This document shows positions 6,946 to 52,788 of a DNA stretch of 52,875 nt, piece after piece. Within the stretch, counting starts at the first letter, position 1. Every line of letters begins with the position of its first letter. The position numbers and the translations under genes were made by a program. The stretch is taken from contig CACANS010000004.1 of NCBI GenBank assembly GCA_902533945.1, positions 1 through 52,875 of the forward strand, written 5' to 3'. Source of the stretch: an uncultured Pelagibacteraceae bacterium. GTDB lineage: Bacteria > Pseudomonadota > Alphaproteobacteria > Pelagibacterales > Pelagibacteraceae. The notes below the pieces were generated by a model. That model had not been told where the DNA came from, did not search any database, and worked only from the letters and a program-made list of their open reading frames with translations.

Positions 6946-9137
6946 TGAAAGTTACCGAACAAATTGCAATAGATCATGGTTTAAAAAAAGAGGAATTTAA
7001 TAAAATTTGTGATCTATTAAAAAGAATACCAAATTTAACTGAACTTGGTATTTTTTCTGCTATGTGGAATGAGCACTGCTCATATAAATCATCAAGTATT
7101 CACCTAAAAAAACTTTATACAAAAGGAAAAAAAGTTATTCAAGGTCCTGGTGAAAATGCTGGTGTCATTGATATTGAAGACGACGATGCGATAGTTTTTA
7201 AAATTGAAAGTCATAATCACCCCTCTTTTATAGAACCCTACCAAGGCGCAGCAACAGGTGTTGGGGGAATAATGAGAGATGTTTTTACAATGGGTGCAAG
7301 ACCAATAGCAAATTTAAATTCTATTCATTTTGGTTCTCCACAACATCCTAAAACGAAAAATTTATTAAGAGGTGTAGTTAAAGGTATTGGCGGTTATGGA
7401 AATTGTATGGGAATACCAACTATAGGTGGCCAAACTTGCTTTGACGATTCTTATAACGGAAATATTTTAGTTAATGCAATGACAATAGGATTAGTTAATA
7501 AAAAAAAAATTTTTTATTCCAAAGCTGCGGGTATTAATAAACCAGTAATTTATGTTGGGTCAAAAACTGGTCGTGATGGAATTCATGGTGCAAGTATGGC
7601 TTCAGCTATTTTTGATGATAAAATAGAGGAAAAAAAACCGACAGTTCAAGTTGGAGATCCCTTTACAGAAAAACTATTATTAGAAGCATGTTTAGAGTTA
7701 ATGGCAGGTAAATCAATTATATCTATCCAAGATATGGGGGCAGCGGGATTAACATCTTCAAGTATTGAAATGGCATCAAAGGGTAATTTAGGTATTGAAT
7801 TAAATTTAAGTAAAGTTCCGTGCCGTGAAGATAAAATGACACCTTATGAAATTATGCTATCTGAAAGCCAAGAAAGAATGTTGATAGTTTTAGAAAATGG
7901 AAAAGAAGAAGAAGCAAAAAAGATTTTTGACAAATGGAATTTAGATTTTGCAATTATTGGAAAAACAACTGATACCAAAAAAATAGAACTTTTTTTTGAT
8001 AATAATAAAGTAGCAGAAATTCCAATAAATATATTAGCGGAGAGTGCTCCTGTTTATGATCGAAAGTGGAAAAAAACTAAACTCCCACAAAAAATAAAAT
8101 TTAAAAAAGATGATTTTAAAAAATTAAAAATTACAGAAGTTCTTAAAAAAATTCTAAGTTTGCCAAATATTTCTAGCAAAGAATGGATCTGGCAACAGTA
8201 TGATCATACAGTAATGGGGGATACCATTCAAAAACCCGGTTCAGATTCAGGAGTTGTAAGAGTTCACGGAACCAATAAAGCAATAGCTACATCTGTGGAT
8301 TCTTCTGCAACGTATTGTTATTCTCATCCACTTACAGGTGGAAAGCAAGTAGTTTGCGAAAGTTGGAGAAATTTAATTTCTTGTGGATCTGAACCAATGG
8401 CTATTACTAACTGTCTAAATTTTGGTAACCCTGAAAAAGAAAAAAATATGGGAGAATTTGTTGAATGTGTTGAAGGTATTAGTGAAGCAAGTAAATTTTT
8501 AGATTATCCAGTGGTTTCTGGAAATGTATCTTTTTACAATGAGACTAAAGACAAAGGAATCAAACCTACGCCTGCAATTGGAGGAGTTGGTTTGATTAAA
8601 GATTATAAACAAATGATCACCATGGATTTAAAAAAAAGTAAAAATTTAATTTTGGTTATTGGAAAAACTGGGGGCCATTTAGACCAAAGTATTTTTGCAA
8701 TAAACATATTAAATGAAAAAAAGGGTCCTCCGCCAGAAATTAATTTATTTAACGAAAAAAATAATGGTAAAACAGTTTTAAAATTAATAAAAGAAGGTTT
8801 GGTTAATTCTGCTCACGATGTTTCGTTAGGAGGAATAATTACTGCTATTTCAAAAATGGCAATTAAAGGAAAAAAAGGTTTTAAACTTAATAAGATTAAA
8901 GTTTTAATTAATAAATTTGATTATTATTTTGGTGAAGATCAAGGAAGATACATAATTGAAATAGAACCAAATAATCTCAAAAAAGTAGAAAAAATTTTAA
9001 AAGATAATTCGGTTCATTATGATAGCGTTGGTTTAGTGACAGAAAATGATATAATAGTAGATAAAGAGCCATTTCTGCATATTGACGATTTAGTTAAATC
9101 TAATAAAAGTTGGTTAGAAGATTTTATGGATAAATAA
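6945..9137 (+). CDS. purL: Phosphoribosylformylglycinamidine synthase subunit PurL
   Basis: [61 protein letters not shown] motifs; small (730 aa) PurL paired with PurS/PurQ. Confidence 0.96.
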
Positions 9138-46757: not shown

Positions 46758-47780
46758 ATGAAAAAAATTATTGTTACTGGTGGATTAGGTTTTATTGGTA
46801 GTAATTTAATTAAAATATTATTAAAAAAAAACTATTATGTAGTAAATCTAGACAAAATCTCCTACGCATCGAATTTTTATAATACTAAAGAATTTCAAAA
46901 TAGTAAAAAATATAAATTTATTAAATGTGATATAAATGATCAAAAAAAAATTTTTTCAACTTTAAAAAAATACAAACCAAGTTGTATATTTAATTTGGCT
47001 GCAGAAACTCATGTTGATAGATCTATTGATGGCCCAGGACCATTTATTAAAAATAATATTAATGGAACTTTTTCAGTACTCGAAGCAGTTAGAAAATACT
47101 CAAAAATAAATAAGTCGTTAAAACTAATTCATATATCAACTGATGAAGTCTATGGTGACGTTTTGAAAGGTAGAAGCAAAGAAGATCATTCTTATAAACC
47201 AAGTTCTCCTTATGCTGCATCAAAGGCATCGTCCGATCATCTTGTATTATCGTACGTAAGAACTTATGGTTTAAATGCTATAATAACTAACTGTTCAAAT
47301 AACTACGGGCCAAGACAACACCCTGAAAAGCTAATCCCAAAACTTATTTATAATATTTTACATAACAGTTTTCTGCCAATATATGGAAAGGGTAAAAATT
47401 CTAGAGAGTGGATATATGTTGATGACCATTGTGAAGCTTTAATTAAAATTTTTATTAAAGGAAAAGTTGGGGAATTCTATAATATTGGATCTAATAAGAA
47501 TTTAAACAATATTGAAGTTACTAAATCTTTATTATCAATTGCTAAAAATATTTTTAAAATTAATACTAAAGCTAAAATTAAATTTGTAAAAGATAGACCT
47601 GGCCACGATTTAAGATATGCGATAAATAGTTCAAAAATTAAAAACAAGTTAAAATGGAAACCTAAAACTAATTTTAAGCAAGGATTATATAAAACATTTT
47701 TATGGTATATGAATAATCAAAAATATTATAAAGGTATTTCAAAAAAGAATATTGTAAAAAGACTGGGAGTTAAAAAATGA
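46758..47780 (+). CDS. rfbB: dTDP-glucose 4,6-dehydratase
   Basis: IIVTGGLGFIGSNLIKILLKK, NLAAETHVDRSIDGPGPFIKNNINGTF, HISTDEVYGDV, YAASKASSDHLV, NNYGPRQHPEKLIPKLI. Confidence 0.95.
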   Translation: MKKIIVTGGLGFIGSNLIKILLKKNYYVVNLDKISYASNFYNTKEFQNSKKYKFIKCDINDQKKIFSTLKKYKPSCIFNLAAETHVDRSIDGPGPFIKNNINGTFSVLEAVRKYSKINKSLKLIHISTDEVYGDVLKGRSKEDHSYKPSSPYAASKASSDHLVLSYVRTYGLNAIITNCSNNYGPRQHPEKLIPKLIYNILHNSFLPIYGKGKNSREWIYVDDHCEALIKIFIKGKVGEFYNIGSNKNLNNIEVTKSLLSIAKNIFKINTKAKIKFVKDRPGHDLRYAINSSKIKNKLKWKPKTNFKQGLYKTFLWYMNNQKYYKGISKKNIVKRLGVKK

Positions 47781-48646
47781 TTAAAAAAGGAATTGTTTTA
47801 GCTGGTGGAATGGGAACAAGAATGAGTCCATTAACAAAAGCTGTTAATAAACAATTATTACCGATATACGATAAACCGTTAATTTATTATCCACTTTCTC
47901 TTTTAATGTTAGCTAAAATTAAAGATATACTAATTATTGTTAACAAAGGTCAATTAAGCCAGTTCAAAAAAATTTTACCTAATGGAAACAACTTAGGAAT
48001 TAAAATCACATATAAAGAACAAGATAGACCAAAAGGTCTTCCTGACGCTTTTATCATTGGAGAAAAATTTATAGAAAAAGACAATGTCGCTCTAATTTTA
48101 GGTGATAATTTTTTTTACGGACAAAATTTACGTAGCATGCTTTTAAAATGCTCAAAATTAAAAAAAGGTGCAAAAATATTAATTCATCCTGTTTCTAACC
48201 CTGAATTATATGGTGTTGCTAAATTAAATAATAAAAATAGAATTATTCTTTTAAAAGAAAAACCTAAAAAATTTATCTCTAAATTTGCTGTAACTGGATT
48301 TTATTTTTTTGATAATAAAGTTATTAGTTATGCAAAAAAATTGAAACCCTCGAAAAGAAATGAATTAGAAATAATTGATTTATTAAAGAAATATAAAAAT
48401 TCTAAAAATCTTTATGCAGATTATGTTGGTAGAGGTGGTGCTTGGCTTGATACAGGTTCAATTGATGATTTTTACAAAGCCAGCTCTTTTGTATCTGCTA
48501 TAGAAAGCAGACAAGGATTAAAAATCGCCTGCCTAGAAGAAATTGCACTAAATAATAAATGGATAAATAAAAAAGAAATTTTAAATTCAATAAAATTTTA
48601 TGGAAAGTGTGAATATTCAAATTATTTAAATAAATTAATAAAATAA
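47777..48646 (+). CDS. rfbA: Glucose-1-phosphate thymidylyltransferase
   Basis: KGIVLAGGMGTRMSPLTKAVNKQLLPIYDKPLIYYPLS, LGDNFFYGQ, GGAWLDTGSIDDFYKAS. Confidence 0.96.
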   Translation: MIKKGIVLAGGMGTRMSPLTKAVNKQLLPIYDKPLIYYPLSLLMLAKIKDILIIVNKGQLSQFKKILPNGNNLGIKITYKEQDRPKGLPDAFIIGEKFIEKDNVALILGDNFFYGQNLRSMLLKCSKLKKGAKILIHPVSNPELYGVAKLNNKNRIILLKEKPKKFISKFAVTGFYFFDNKVISYAKKLKPSKRNELEIIDLLKKYKNSKNLYADYVGRGGAWLDTGSIDDFYKASSFVSAIESRQGLKIACLEEIALNNKWINKKEILNSIKFYGKCEYSNYLNKLIK

Positions 48647-49164
48647 TGAAAAAAATTAAAACTCCTTTTAAAGGATTGCTTATATATCAAAACAAAAGAT
48701 TTGATGATAAGAGAGGATTTTTAAGAGAAGTATTTCATAAATATATAATTAAAAAAAACTTAATATTCTCTGTAACTTCAAGTTCAAAAAAAAATGTTCT
48801 TAGAGGTTTACATCTTCAAACAAAAAAATCACAAGACAAATATATAACAGTTTTAAAAGGTAAAATATTGGATGTAGTTGTTGATTTAAGAAAAAAATCA
48901 AAAACATTTGGTAAACATTTTAAAATTATACTGGATGAAAACAACAGTAAATTTTTATTTATACCAAAAGGATTTGCTCATGGATTTTTAGGACTAGGTA
49001 AAGAAAATATTGTATTATATAGCTGTACAAATTATAGACATGCTAAGAGTGAAAAATCTATTCTATGGAATGATAAAGATCTAAAAATAAACTGGGGAAT
49101 AAAAAATCCTATAATTTCAAAAAAAGATAGATCTGCACAAAAATTTAAAGATATTAAATTTTAA
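48646..49164 (+). CDS. rfbC: dTDP-4-dehydrorhamnose 3,5-epimerase
   Basis: FDDKRGFLREVFH, VLRGLHLQTKKSQDKYITVLKGKILDVVVDLRKKSKTFGKH, FIPKGFAHGFLGL. Confidence 0.95.
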   Translation: MKKIKTPFKGLLIYQNKRFDDKRGFLREVFHKYIIKKNLIFSVTSSSKKNVLRGLHLQTKKSQDKYITVLKGKILDVVVDLRKKSKTFGKHFKIILDENNSKFLFIPKGFAHGFLGLGKENIVLYSCTNYRHAKSEKSILWNDKDLKINWGIKNPIISKKDRSAQKFKDIKF

Positions 49165-49171
49165 AACTTAA

Positions 49172-49888
49172 ATGAAAAATAATAAAATAATTTTTACCGG
49201 AGGAAGTGGTAGATTCGGTAGTGTTTTAAAAAAAAATAAAACTAAATATAAAGTTTTTTTTCCAACAAAAAAAAAATTAGACATAACAAATTATAAAAAA
49301 TCTTTTAACTATATAAAAAAAATTAAACCAAAATTTCTTATTCATGCTGCTGCATTATCAAGACCAATGAGTATTCATGATAAAGATATTAATAAAAGCA
49401 TTGATATAAATATAGTTGGAACATGCAATATTGTTAAAATATGCTCAAAACTAAAAATTAAATTAATTTTTTTTTCCACAAATTATGTTTATCCATCTAA
49501 ATCAGGAATTTATAATGAAAACAATAGCGTCCTTCCAAGAAATACTTACGCATGGTCAAAATTAGGTGCTGAGTCAGCAGTTCAAATGTATAAAAATTCC
49601 TTAATTCTAAGAATATGCATGACCGAAAAACCTTTTATTCACAAAAAAGCTTTTGCAAATATGAAAACTAATTTTATGTTTCAAGAAAACTTAGCAAAAA
49701 ATCTTTATAAATTGATAAATCTAAAAGGAATAATAAATGTTGGTGGTAAAATACAATCTGTATATAATTTTGCTAAAAAACATAATCCTCAAGTTAAAAA
49801 AATTTTTGCTAGTAAATCTCAACAAAAATATTTTCCATTAAATTCAACAATGAATATTTCTAAATTCAAGAAAATAATAAAAAAATAA
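49172..49888 (+). CDS. RmlD-like / NAD-dependent epimerase-family sugar-nucleotide reductase
   Basis: IIFTGGSGRFGSVLKK, LDITNYKKSFNYIKKIKPKFLIHAAALSR, STNYVYPSKSGIYNENNSVLPRNTYAWSKLGAE (YxxxK). Confidence 0.8.
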   Translation: MKNNKIIFTGGSGRFGSVLKKNKTKYKVFFPTKKKLDITNYKKSFNYIKKIKPKFLIHAAALSRPMSIHDKDINKSIDINIVGTCNIVKICSKLKIKLIFFSTNYVYPSKSGIYNENNSVLPRNTYAWSKLGAESAVQMYKNSLILRICMTEKPFIHKKAFANMKTNFMFQENLAKNLYKLINLKGIINVGGKIQSVYNFAKKHNPQVKKIFASKSQQKYFPLNSTMNISKFKKIIKK

Positions 49889-49942: not shown

Positions 49943-50019
49943 TGGTAGCGGGAAGTGGGATCGAACCACTGACCTCGGGCTTATGAGTCCCGCGCTCTAA
50001 CCAACTGAGCTACCCCGCC
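49943..50019 (-). tRNA. tRNA-Met (anticodon CAU), CCA encoded
   Basis: Reverse strand GGCGGGGTAGCTCAGTTGGTTAGAGCGCGGGACTCATAAGCCCGAGGTCAGTGGTTCGATCCCACTTCCCGCTACCA; 77 nt, D-arm, anticodon loop CTCATAA, T-loop TTCGATC, acceptor stem pair. Elongator Met versus Ile2(CAU) assigned by resemblance only. Confidence 0.93.
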
Positions 50020-50106: not shown

Positions 50107-52788
50107 CTAATACTGTTTATTTTTAAATATAGCTTGAGAAATCGAAACAACAAAAGAAGTTATTCCATAAGCCATTAGTATCAAAATTATAATAAATAAA
50201 AATAAAGCAAATCTGTTAATCTCTTTTTCGGTTGGTTTTTTATTAACTTCTTCTATAATTTTTTTGTTTTCTTCCTTTAAAATTTTATTTTTGAAAATTT
50301 CTTTTTCAAATTTTATTTTTTCATTTTCTTTAAGAAGTTCAACAATTAATTGTTTACTGGCTTTATTTTCTTCTAGATTTTTTGAACTAAATAGTTTTAG
50401 TTTTTCGTTTTGGGCTTTTAGTTTAGCATTATCTTCTTGAATTTTTTTATTTAATTGTTTAAGTGCATTATTTAATTGTTTAAGTTCCTCAAGTTCTAAT
50501 AAATCTTTTTCAGAAATGGTATTTGCTATTTTTAAATCTTTCTTCAGTTTTGTATCAGGTACTGGAAGTTCTGACAATTTTTTCCCAAAAGACTTTGTTA
50601 GAGAAACAGCTGCAATTTGATTAATTAAACCGTCTTCATTGCCATACATTAAATCTAGATCAAAGTTCATATTTTTAGTCTCTTTTGTAAAAGAAAAACC
50701 AGCAAAATACCCAGTTGTTGAAGAAGATGCGGGAGATACATTTTTATTTTCTCCATCAGCTGTAATTTTTATAGAATTATTAAGATTATTGTTAAGATTA
50801 GCCCCAACATAAGGTTGGATAATAAAACCTTTGCCAAGTTCTTCGGTATATCTTACTTCAAATCCTGCACCCAGCACTTGTTCTATTGCTTCGTCGACTG
50901 ACAAATCACCTTCACTAAATTTTGCAAGATACTGAGGAAATCTTTGCAATCCTAAAGTTGACTGAACACTTAAATTTAATGAACCATCTTCACTTGTTTT
51001 TATTTCTTTTCCAAGTTTTGTATTAAACCCAGCAAATTCAGATAATAAATTTGTGCTTATTTTTGCTTTTGTATCTGTATCAAAATCAGTAACAGTTAGA
51101 TCGTTCAAACCAATCATAGGTGTAAAGGATGCTTTAAATCCATTATTTTCATAAACACTTTTTAAGCCTAGTGCAAAATTATCTCCTCCTAGGAACTCAC
51201 CATTGTCAAAGTCTCCATCTTGTCTTGTATAACCGAGGAAAATATTACTTCTTAAAGATCCCCAACTCATTGGGCTTAACTGACCCACAACACCTGACAT
51301 TTCTCCCTTATAAGTCCCATCTCTTTTCTGCGTGCTATGAAATATTTTAAACATTTTATCTTCAGGAAAATGCCAATTAATATAGTTTGCAGCATCAAAT
51401 AAACCTCTAAGCTTAGTTAAAACATTTTCGCTTCTGTATTTCGGATTGTTTTGAGCTATTTCAAGATCTTCACCAAGAATTGTTAGAGTACCGTCATCAG
51501 CTGTTCCATCACTATCTAAATCTTCTTCTGTTAAAGTATAAGTATCATTGCCTGTAAGATTGTTAGTAATTGTTAAATCACCATCATAGTTATAGACTGT
51601 AATAGTAATATCTTTTTTTATGCTGGGATCTAAGACTATAGTGGATTCTGTTTTTCCCAAGTCAATACCACCAGTAAACTCAGCTTCTTCTTTTACTTTA
51701 ATTGTAGTTCCCGAAGTTATTGTTCCACTTGCAGAAGGAATAATTATAATTGCTCTACCAAAATCGCCTGATCCAGCTGATATAGTTCCACTATTTTCAA
51801 TTGTTGCATTACTGTGAGCATTATTTGCGTCATTGTCTCCAATAGTAATGGCATGGTTGTTTGCGCCAAAAGCAGAAATTGTCCCTGAATTTATTATTTT
51901 TGTACCAGAACCATATTCTCCAACTTGAATTGTGGTGTAATCATAAGCATTTGGAGCTTGTCCATCAGTCCTTCCATGATGCGCATAATTATCTTGTTTT
52001 ATTGTTCCAGAATTAGTTATAGTCAAATTAGTTGTACCACCTAAATAAAATATTCTTCTACTGCTCTGCATTGTTCCAGAATTATTAAAATTAATTTCAT
52101 CAGTTGAGTCAAAGGCTTGAACTACTCCCCAATATGCATTTTTGCTACCAAAAGTTTCTGTACCTTGTCTTATTGTACCTGTATTTGTAAAATTAATGAT
52201 GGCTCCATTGTCTAAATCTGACATTCCAATAAGGTCCCAATTTCTTGCTGTATTTTCTATCGTTCCATGATTAACAATTGTTATAGTGTCTCCTGAGCTA
52301 CCTGCTCCATCTAAATCTAATACATCATAATCATTTACACGTTCGCCAGCTGCAATTTTTCCACCAACATTATTTGTAACTGTAATATCACCAGTAGCAC
52401 TTCTTAAATCTATTGTTCTATTATGTCCGGCCCAGACTGTTCCATTATTAGTAAGAGTAAAATTGACTGAACTTGATGCATCTATTGAGTCATCACAACC
52501 TGATCCACAAGCTCTAAGTTCAGTCGGGTAGCTCTCTTGTTGATGAGCAATTATATTTCCATTGTTAATTACGGTTACATTAGAGTGGCCTACAGCATCA
52601 ATTACTTTGTTACCATCGTAATAATATGTGTCACCAGAATCTACAGTAAAGGTTTCATCATCACTTAGTAATTGTCGCGATGTAAAAGTTTCAGCCCAAG
52701 CAAAAGTGCTATAAAAAAATAAACAAAAAACTATAACTAAAAACCTTTTCATAGTTCTAAATATGACATTGTAAAAGAAATTTAGCAA
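50107..52788 (-). CDS. Autotransporter-like protein: signal peptide, beta-helical passenger with NSGTI-type repeats, beta-barrel, then coiled coil and C-terminal TM helix
   Basis: Probable true start is the internal Met at 52752 (MKRFLVIVFCLFFYSTFAWA-ET signal peptide). Repeats (INSGTISAFG, ENSGTISAGS, TNSGTIKQD, NNSGTMQSS...); barrel-like region ~50581-51354; coiled coil ~50236-50514; TM ~50140-50211. Confidence 0.85.
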   Translation of the reverse strand: MLNFFYNVIFRTMKRFLVIVFCLFFYSTFAWAETFTSRQLLSDDETFTVDSGDTYYYDGNKVIDAVGHSNVTVINNGNIIAHQQESYPTELRACGSGCDDSIDASSSVNFTLTNNGTVWAGHNRTIDLRSATGDITVTNNVGGKIAAGERVNDYDVLDLDGAGSSGDTITIVNHGTIENTARNWDLIGMSDLDNGAIINFTNTGTIRQGTETFGSKNAYWGVVQAFDSTDEINFNNSGTMQSSRRIFYLGGTTNLTITNSGTIKQDNYAHHGRTDGQAPNAYDYTTIQVGEYGSGTKIINSGTISAFGANNHAITIGDNDANNAHSNATIENSGTISAGSGDFGRAIIIIPSASGTITSGTTIKVKEEAEFTGGIDLGKTESTIVLDPSIKKDITITVYNYDGDLTITNNLTGNDTYTLTEEDLDSDGTADDGTLTILGEDLEIAQNNPKYRSENVLTKLRGLFDAANYINWHFPEDKMFKIFHSTQKRDGTYKGEMSGVVGQLSPMSWGSLRSNIFLGYTRQDGDFDNGEFLGGDNFALGLKSVYENNGFKASFTPMIGLNDLTVTDFDTDTKAKISTNLLSEFAGFNTKLGKEIKTSEDGSLNLSVQSTLGLQRFPQYLAKFSEGDLSVDEAIEQVLGAGFEVRYTEELGKGFIIQPYVGANLNNNLNNSIKITADGENKNVSPASSSTTGYFAGFSFTKETKNMNFDLDLMYGNEDGLINQIAAVSLTKSFGKKLSELPVPDTKLKKDLKIANTISEKDLLELEELKQLNNALKQLNKKIQEDNAKLKAQNEKLKLFSSKNLEENKASKQLIVELLKENEKIKFEKEIFKNKILKEENKKIIEEVNKKPTEKEINRFALFLFIIILILMAYGITSFVVSISQAIFKNKQY

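What the first reader, a model, noticed from the sequence alone, without database searches (positions are those of the whole stretch)
50107..52788. Autotransporter-like barrel that continues into a coiled coil and a C-terminal TM helix: candidate outer-to-inner membrane bridge
Classical type V autotransporters end with the last barrel strand. Here the barrel-like region (to ~50581, ...AAVSLTKSFGKK) is followed by ~157 residues: a Pro-containing linker (LPVPDTKLKKD), a ~90-residue Lys/Glu/Leu/Asn heptad-like segment (LLELEELKQLNNALKQLNKKIQEDNAKLKAQNEKLKLF...), and a strongly hydrophobic helix (FALFLFIIILILMAYGITSFVVSI) with a short basic tail. If the barrel inserts in the outer membrane, its C-terminus faces the periplasm; the coiled coil could span the periplasm and the TM helix anchor in the inner membrane. 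One polypeptide would then tether both membranes and display a beta-helix passenger. I do not know of a described autotransporter with this layout.
Basis: partly seen in the sequence, partly recalled or inferred. Interest (0 to 1): 0.78.

Follow-up and report, generated by a model that had tools for sequence, protein, structure and literature searches.

The report
Autotransporter with inner-membrane tail helix
An ocean bacterium (SAR11) makes a surface-display protein of a common type whose outer-membrane barrel, instead of ending there as usual, runs on into a long helix and a membrane-crossing helix, so one molecule may link the cell's outer and inner membranes; the layout is real and shared by relatives, but the link itself is untested.

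Summary
One gene (50107-52752, minus strand, 881 aa) encodes a signal peptide, a beta-helix-like passenger, a linker helix and a 12-strand PF03797 autotransporter barrel, followed by a ~27-aa linker, an ~88-aa helix and a ~31-aa hydrophobic helix with a basic end. AlphaFold2 gives the barrel pLDDT 87-96; its best PDB matches are BrkA, NalP, EspP and EstA. It is not a fusion artefact: 22 distinct sequences, nearly all from Pelagibacteraceae, share the layout.

The same barrel family shows three endings: class C stops at the terminal Phe, class B adds a short helix, class A adds helix plus TM. Rooted on class C, the tail was gained once and B lost the TM once. Of 59 complete PF03797 autotransporters examined as controls, 58 end on the last strand; one carries an OmpA peptidoglycan-binding tail.

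The outer-to-inner membrane bridge is the best topology by inference, not shown experimentally. Cautions: heptad periodicity is significant only in part of the helix, and class B keeps a helix without the TM, so the helix has a role beyond inner-membrane anchoring. Verdict: a new variant of type Va autotransporter.

The parts
50107..52752 (-). Whole gene, 881 aa, class A (tailed) autotransporter; ATG at 52752-52750, stop 50109-50107
   Evidence: homologs
52693..52752 (-). Signal peptide, residues 1-20 (MKRFLVIVFCLFFYSTFAWA), likely signal peptidase I site AWA|E
   Evidence: sequence reading; hydrophobic N-terminus shared by homologs; predicted helix 2-17
51463..52692 (-). Passenger, residues 21-430, short regular strands (beta-helix-like), NxGTI-type repeats
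   Evidence: AF2 model; repeat similarity to other alphaproteobacterial proteins
51388..51435 (-). Linker/plug helix before the barrel, residues 440-455
   Evidence: predicted helices 436-456
50587..51360 (-). 12-strand autotransporter beta-domain (PF03797), residues 465-722; last strand ...IAAVSLTKSF
   Evidence: PF03797 32.4 bits over cut-off 26 (G000:C4:50752-51261); 12 long strands, pLDDT mostly 87-96; Foldseek top hits EstA, EspP, BrkA, NalP
50509..50586 (-). Linker, residues 723-748, Pro-containing, low-confidence/unstructured, expected periplasmic
   Evidence: pLDDT ~40
50245..50508 (-). Long helix, residues 749-836 (88 aa, ~13 nm), Leu-zipper-like in its N-terminal part; conserved core NEKLK..EEN..SKQLIVELLKENEKIK
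   Evidence: homologous segment in class B
50122..50214 (-). Hydrophobic TM helix, residues 847-877 (core FALFLFIIILILMAYGITSFVV)
50110..50145 (-). Short basic C-terminal end (SISQAIFKNKQY), residues 870-881, overlapping the end of the predicted TM helix; net +2 to +4 in all 22 class A sequences

Best explanation
This is a classical (type Va) autotransporter that carries a C-terminal periplasmic extension ending in an inner-membrane anchor. Inferred pathway: Sec exports the chain; the final hydrophobic helix acts as a stop-transfer sequence and stays in the inner membrane with its basic tail in the cytoplasm. BAM folds the 12-strand barrel into the outer membrane, recognising an internal rather than C-terminal last strand, and the beta-helix passenger is displayed outside. 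Because the barrel's C-terminus faces the periplasm, the linker plus the ~13 nm helix runs inward to the anchor, possibly paired with copies of itself at its Leu-zipper-like part. One polypeptide then connects the surface display domain to the inner membrane. Shown here: gene integrity, domain order, barrel fold match, homologs, clean distribution of the tail on the barrel tree. Inferred: membrane placement, spanning, pairing. The most likely use is fixing a surface adhesin in the envelope against pulling force, rather than being the cell's main outer-membrane tether.
For: Barrel: PF03797 over cut-off; 12 strands at pLDDT mostly 87-96; the leading Foldseek hits are autotransporter beta-domains, NalP TM-score up to 0.81 by target length. 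Tail real and conserved: 22 distinct class A sequences, barrel-to-TM distance 116-125 residues in 18 of 22 although the sequence varies; hydrophobicity bimodal; C-terminal net charge +2 to +4 in all 22 versus -2 to +2 in the 15 residues before the TM, fitting a cytoplasmic tail by the positive-inside rule. Purifying selection: dN/dS 0.07-0.45 for linker+helix, 0.32-0.84 for TM. On the barrel tree rooted on class C the tail appears once; class C relatives end at or within six residues of the terminal F. 58 of 59 control autotransporters end on the last strand. The exception, L254, carries an OmpA peptidoglycan-binding domain after the barrel, a precedent for a barrel C-terminal extension reaching into the periplasm.
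Against: No experimental localisation, and structure prediction of a monomer cannot show membranes or oligomers. The helix's coiled-coil periodicity is significant only in its N-terminal part. Class B, the most numerous form found, keeps a shortened helix without a TM, so the helix does something that needs no inner-membrane anchor, and no TM remnant follows class B's stop codon. A single-copy PF00691 protein of Pal size in SAR11 genomes already offers a generic outer-membrane link. The TM segment evolves fastest (dN/dS up to 0.84).
Confidence: 0.55

Rival explanations
1. The tail is an oligomerisation or peptidoglycan-contact device. The helix makes a periplasmic coiled coil (dimer or trimer) that clusters barrels or passes through the wall; the TM in class A merely fixes its end.
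For: The helix is shared by class A and class B whereas the TM is not; Leu-zipper spacing and 7- and 14-residue insertions in the N-terminal part; SlpA of Deinococcus uses a coiled coil beside a barrel (PMC9388160); another alphaproteobacterial autotransporter has an OmpA peptidoglycan domain in the same place.
Against: Rooted on class C, the TM is ancestral to the tailed group and B is the derived loss, so the TM was part of the original tail; no known peptidoglycan-binding domain in the tail; periodicity weak over the whole helix.
Confidence: 0.22
2. The C-terminal helix is a transient assembly anchor. It holds the precursor at the inner membrane during barrel folding and is then cleaved, so the mature protein is an ordinary autotransporter.
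For: The TM is the fastest-evolving part, with hydrophobicity kept rather than sequence; the linker is low-confidence and probably accessible.
Against: The long conserved helix between barrel and TM is not needed for this; three other autotransporters in the same genome are found by PF03797, and the SAR11 autotransporters checked manage without such a tail. No cleavage motif was looked for.
Confidence: 0.12
3. The hydrophobic helix does not enter the inner membrane but inserts in or lies along the outer membrane (a hairpin back), or it blocks export so that the barrel is not assembled.
For: None direct; alpha-helices in the outer membrane exist but are rare (general knowledge, e.g. Wza).
Against: Purifying selection on the barrel (dN/dS 0.05-0.24) argues that it folds and works; the basic tail fits an inner-membrane stop-transfer segment.
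Confidence: 0.08
4. Fusion artefact: assembly or frameshift error joining an autotransporter to a separate coiled-coil/TM gene.
For: None found.
Against: The same fused frame occurs in 22 distinct sequences from many independent SAGs and MAGs, in several genera; the tail model finds no separate tail gene at E<1e-4.
Confidence: 0.01

Closest known systems
Type Va (classical) autotransporters with PF03797 beta-domain (BrkA, EspP, NalP, EstA, AIDA-I)
   Same: Signal peptide, beta-helical passenger, linker helix, 12-strand barrel with matching fold and Pfam family
   Different: Type Va is defined with a C-terminal translocator (PMC9289746). Here 159 further residues follow the last strand, with a long helix and a TM helix
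SlpA / OmpM outer-membrane connectors (Deinococcus, diderm Terrabacteria)
   Same: A barrel joined to a periplasmic coiled coil that links the outer membrane to a deeper envelope layer
   Different: There the coiled coil and SLH domain are N-terminal to the barrel and the target is peptidoglycan (PMC9388160). Here the helix is C-terminal to an autotransporter barrel, no SLH was found, and the end is a TM helix
Phage unimolecular spanins (T1 gp11)
   Same: One polypeptide with an outer-membrane anchor at one end and a C-terminal inner-membrane TM at the other (PMC6139136)
   Different: The u-spanin outer-membrane anchor is a lipid, its periplasmic part is predicted mainly beta, and it disrupts the outer membrane during lysis; no relationship by sequence is claimed
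Autotransporter with C-terminal OmpA domain (L254, found here)
   Same: PF03797 barrel followed by an extension that should reach an inner envelope layer
   Different: The extension is a Pro-rich linker plus PF00691 peptidoglycan-binding domain, with no TM
OmpA / Pal outer-membrane tethers
   Same: Connect the outer membrane inward through the periplasm
   Different: They bind peptidoglycan with PF00691; the window protein's tail has no such domain, and SAR11 genomes carry a separate Pal-sized PF00691 protein

Membership tests
Type Va autotransporter | N-terminal Sec signal peptide | tested here: met
   MKRFLVIVFCLFFYSTFAWA|E read directly; same kind of N-terminus in homologs. No SignalP run.
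Type Va autotransporter | Beta-helical passenger | tested here: inconclusive
   Regular short strands over residues 34-426 in the AF2 model, as a beta-helix would give; the 3D shape itself could not be inspected
Type Va autotransporter | Linker helix in front of the barrel | tested here: met
   Helices 436-439 and 444-456; 435-438 and 440-455
Type Va autotransporter | 12-strand PF03797 translocator | tested here: met
   32.4 bits over cut-off 26, although a plain hmmscan of the protein missed it; 12 long strands; Foldseek to BrkA/NalP/EspP/EstA
[quoted passage not shown]
   159 residues follow F722; 58 of 59 control autotransporters do end there
OmpM/SlpA connector | N-terminal SLH domain plus coiled coil before the barrel | tested here: not met
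   No SLH in Pfam/NCBIfam scans; helix lies after the barrel
Unimolecular spanin | N-terminal lipoprotein signal, C-terminal TM, phage lysis context | tested here: not met
   No lipobox Cys at the predicted cleavage site (read); chromosomal-type gene context; only the C-terminal TM is shared
Periplasmic coiled-coil protein | Heptad periodicity across the helix | tested here: inconclusive
   First 35 columns P=0.015, whole helix P=0.44; 7- and 14-residue insertions
[quoted passage not shown]
   Inferred from topology only

The most novel reading that the evidence does not exclude
A one-piece envelope-spanning autotransporter: a surface-displayed passenger, an outer-membrane barrel, a periplasm-spanning helix and an inner-membrane anchor on a single chain, which could pass mechanical force or a signal from the cell surface to the inner membrane in an abundant group of ocean bacteria.
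Probability: 0.4. Interest if true: 0.82.

Novelty: new variant of a known kind. Interest (0 to 1): 0.62.

Why it matters
If the topology is right, this would be a one-chain link from an outer-membrane barrel to the inner membrane, found in SAR11. It raises a concrete biogenesis question: how BAM assembles a barrel whose C-terminus is held in the inner membrane. It also offers a natural three-way comparison (no tail, helix only, helix plus TM) on the same barrel family, which makes the function of each piece directly testable. Searches of a 5.39-million-paper open library found no description of such an autotransporter, but that library lacks most subscription journals.

Tried and rejected
Fusion artefact: rejected by the homologs. 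Tail encoded by a separate gene elsewhere: the tail model on 197 genomes of the family finds every match with E<1e-4 at this barrel's gene; matches at 8e-4 to 4e-3 on other open frames (289, 286 and 616 aa) were not followed up. Vestigial TM after the class B stop codon, suggested by matches reading through stops: downstream sequence scores no better than shuffles, so rejected. Known domain in the tail: only sub-threshold hits. Sequence match to solved structures: none. Fourier periodicity with the Kyte-Doolittle scale on single sequences: not significant for most, which is why the coiled-coil claim was lowered. Barrel outside the family: a class-wide search found the barrel in one further genome, placed under another family code (G677, two nearby class A genes); the other matches cover passenger positions only.

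Full report
Observation. The window's last gene (minus strand, 50107-52752) encodes 881 residues, with a signal peptide at its start. In the AlphaFold2 models these are an unstructured linker, one long helix (749-836), a short break and a hydrophobic helix (847-877).

What the barrel is. Plain hmmscan of the window protein missed it, but the six-frame genome search gives PF03797 at 32.4 bits, above the curated cut-off of 26, at 50752-51261. The homolog L049 also passes the cut-off (28.7 bits). AlphaFold2 with 55 family sequences gives twelve long strands, pLDDT mostly 87-96. Foldseek against the PDB ranks autotransporter beta-domains first on both models: BrkA, EspP, EstA, NalP, AaaA, AIDA-I and Hbp, with NalP reaching TM-score 0.81 by target length on the barrel+tail model. 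Pore-type barrels such as OmpG and FadL follow. The fold therefore matches a classical type Va translocator.

Is the tail normal for autotransporters? No. Of 30 PF03797 loci from the same genus, order or class, 29 are complete at the C-terminus; 28 of those end on Phe and one on Trp, with no extension. Of the 30 phylum-wide loci, 29 end 20-21 residues after the Pfam match, on Phe or Trp. The single exception, L254, has a Pro-rich linker and an OmpA (PF00691) peptidoglycan-binding domain after the barrel. That is an independent precedent for a barrel C-terminal extension pointing into the periplasm. The control loci are the best-scoring matches, not a random sample. Three other PF03797 matches lie elsewhere in the window's own genome.

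Relatives. A profile of barrel plus tail finds 108 relatives in GTDB genomes; all 80 loci listed are from Pelagibacteraceae or Pelagibacter SAGs and MAGs, and 37 of 397 sampled family genomes match, one of them weakly. A class-wide search adds one genome with the barrel, G677; the other matches cover passenger positions only. Three endings occur on the same barrel. Class C stops at or within six residues of the terminal Phe (L147-L151). Class B adds a short helix (for example DPELEKLFDQLQLAKENERLAEISGRAVEENRIMKEMIIQLIKENNKLKTERNLLLKN) and no TM. Class A adds the long helix and TM (22 distinct sequences). In one search I count roughly ten class A genomes, about twice as many class B and five class C. 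The helix core is homologous between A and B.

Evolution. A maximum-likelihood tree of the barrel alone puts C and B each as one group at 100/100 support. Rooted on C, class A is the background from which B arises, so the TM-bearing tail appeared once and B lost the TM once. The root choice is mine, the branch joining B to the window's clade has 86/66 support, and B sits on a long branch (1.21), so the direction is likely but not certain. Two class A sequences (L002 and the second copy in L043) have tails far more similar (dS 0.20-0.36) than their barrels (dS 1.25), pointing to tail exchange by recombination. Tail segments are under purifying selection: dN/dS 0.07-0.45 for linker+helix and 0.32-0.84 for the TM segment, against 0.05-0.24 for the barrel. 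The TM keeps hydrophobicity rather than sequence.

Tail geometry. From the barrel end to the TM there are 116-125 residues in 18 of 22 class A sequences (range 100-136). An 88-residue helix is about 13 nm at 0.15 nm per residue, and the linkers on either side add several nm. That is in the range needed to cross a periplasm of roughly 15-20 nm (general knowledge from E. coli; no SAR11 figure was obtained). The C-terminal flank carries net +2 to +4 in all 22, against -2 to +2 in the 15 residues before the TM, which fits a cytoplasmic tail.

Coiled coil? Only partly. The first 35 columns of the helix show 3.4-3.5 periodicity in the class A average (P=0.015, uncorrected for testing three segments) with Leu at 7-residue spacing, and two natural insertions are exactly 7 and 14 residues. 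The whole helix does not reach significance (P=0.44), and single sequences mostly do not. I would call it a long helix with a leucine-zipper-like start.

Mechanism. The best-supported reading is a surface-displayed autotransporter whose barrel is held to the inner membrane by a periplasmic helix and a C-terminal anchor. Supported by computation: domain order, barrel fold match, conservation, clean distribution of the tail on the tree. Inferred: inner-membrane insertion of the TM, helix spanning, pairing of helices. Class B is the main caution: it keeps a shortened helix without any anchor and no remnant follows its stop, so the helix must have a use of its own, such as clustering or wall contact.

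Context. In several class A and B loci the gene lies among type IV pilus genes (PilY1, A24 prepilin peptidase, pilin) and a GAF-SpoIIE phosphatase, and in three loci (L028, L036, L043) it follows a PBP2-RodA gene pair and one intervening protein that ends on Phe; the Pfam names were checked in L036 and L064, the rest is by reading the translations. This resembles the hypervariable region HVR1 of strain HTCC1062, listed with three autotransporters and pilins (PMC2217521), and the coastal autotransporter adhesin found next to type IV pilus or type II secretion genes (PMC12636525). It suggests a surface/adhesion role for the passenger, by association only. In the window itself the neighbours are a dTDP-sugar type gene set and a tRNA-like gene.

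Verdict. It is a new variant of a known kind (type Va autotransporter). I place the bridge topology at about 0.55; the rest depends on experiments that these tools cannot run.

Noticed in passing
L254 (G845:C1:390736-391452), residues encoded at L254:982-1500 (-): An alphaproteobacterial PF03797 autotransporter followed by a Pro-rich linker and an OmpA (PF00691, E 5.4e-16) domain: an autotransporter with a peptidoglycan-binding tail.
   Followed up: partly
L002 and L043 (copy at 7340): Barrels diverged (dS 1.25) but tails much closer (dS 0.20-0.36), suggesting tail exchange by recombination.
   Followed up: partly
L040 (1944, 4993), L043 (4564, 7340), L174 (two genes): Pairs of tailed autotransporters side by side or close together in one genome.
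   Followed up: partly
L036, L040, L043, L049, L064, L028: Class A and B autotransporters sit near a type IV pilus island (PilY1, prepilin peptidase, pilin) and a GAF-SpoIIE phosphatase; in L028, L036 and L043 they follow PBP2-RodA genes.
   Followed up: partly
L147-L151 (G331, G493, G206, G492, G247): Class C relatives of the same barrel that end at the terminal Phe (L148 carries six more residues), a natural tailless control.
   Followed up: yes
PF00691 matches in 53 of 61 genomes of the genus and order: Exactly one OmpA-domain match is listed per positive genome, in open frames of about 160-213 aa (Pal size); no OmpA-barrel-length frame is listed.
   Followed up: no
window 46758-49888 (+): A run of dTDP-sugar type genes (dehydratase, nucleotidyltransferase, epimerase, reductase-like) next to the autotransporter, by reading the translations.
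   Followed up: no
window about 49943-50019 (-): A tRNA-like gene with anticodon CAT directly downstream of the autotransporter, by reading the sequence; not run through ARAGORN.
   Followed up: no
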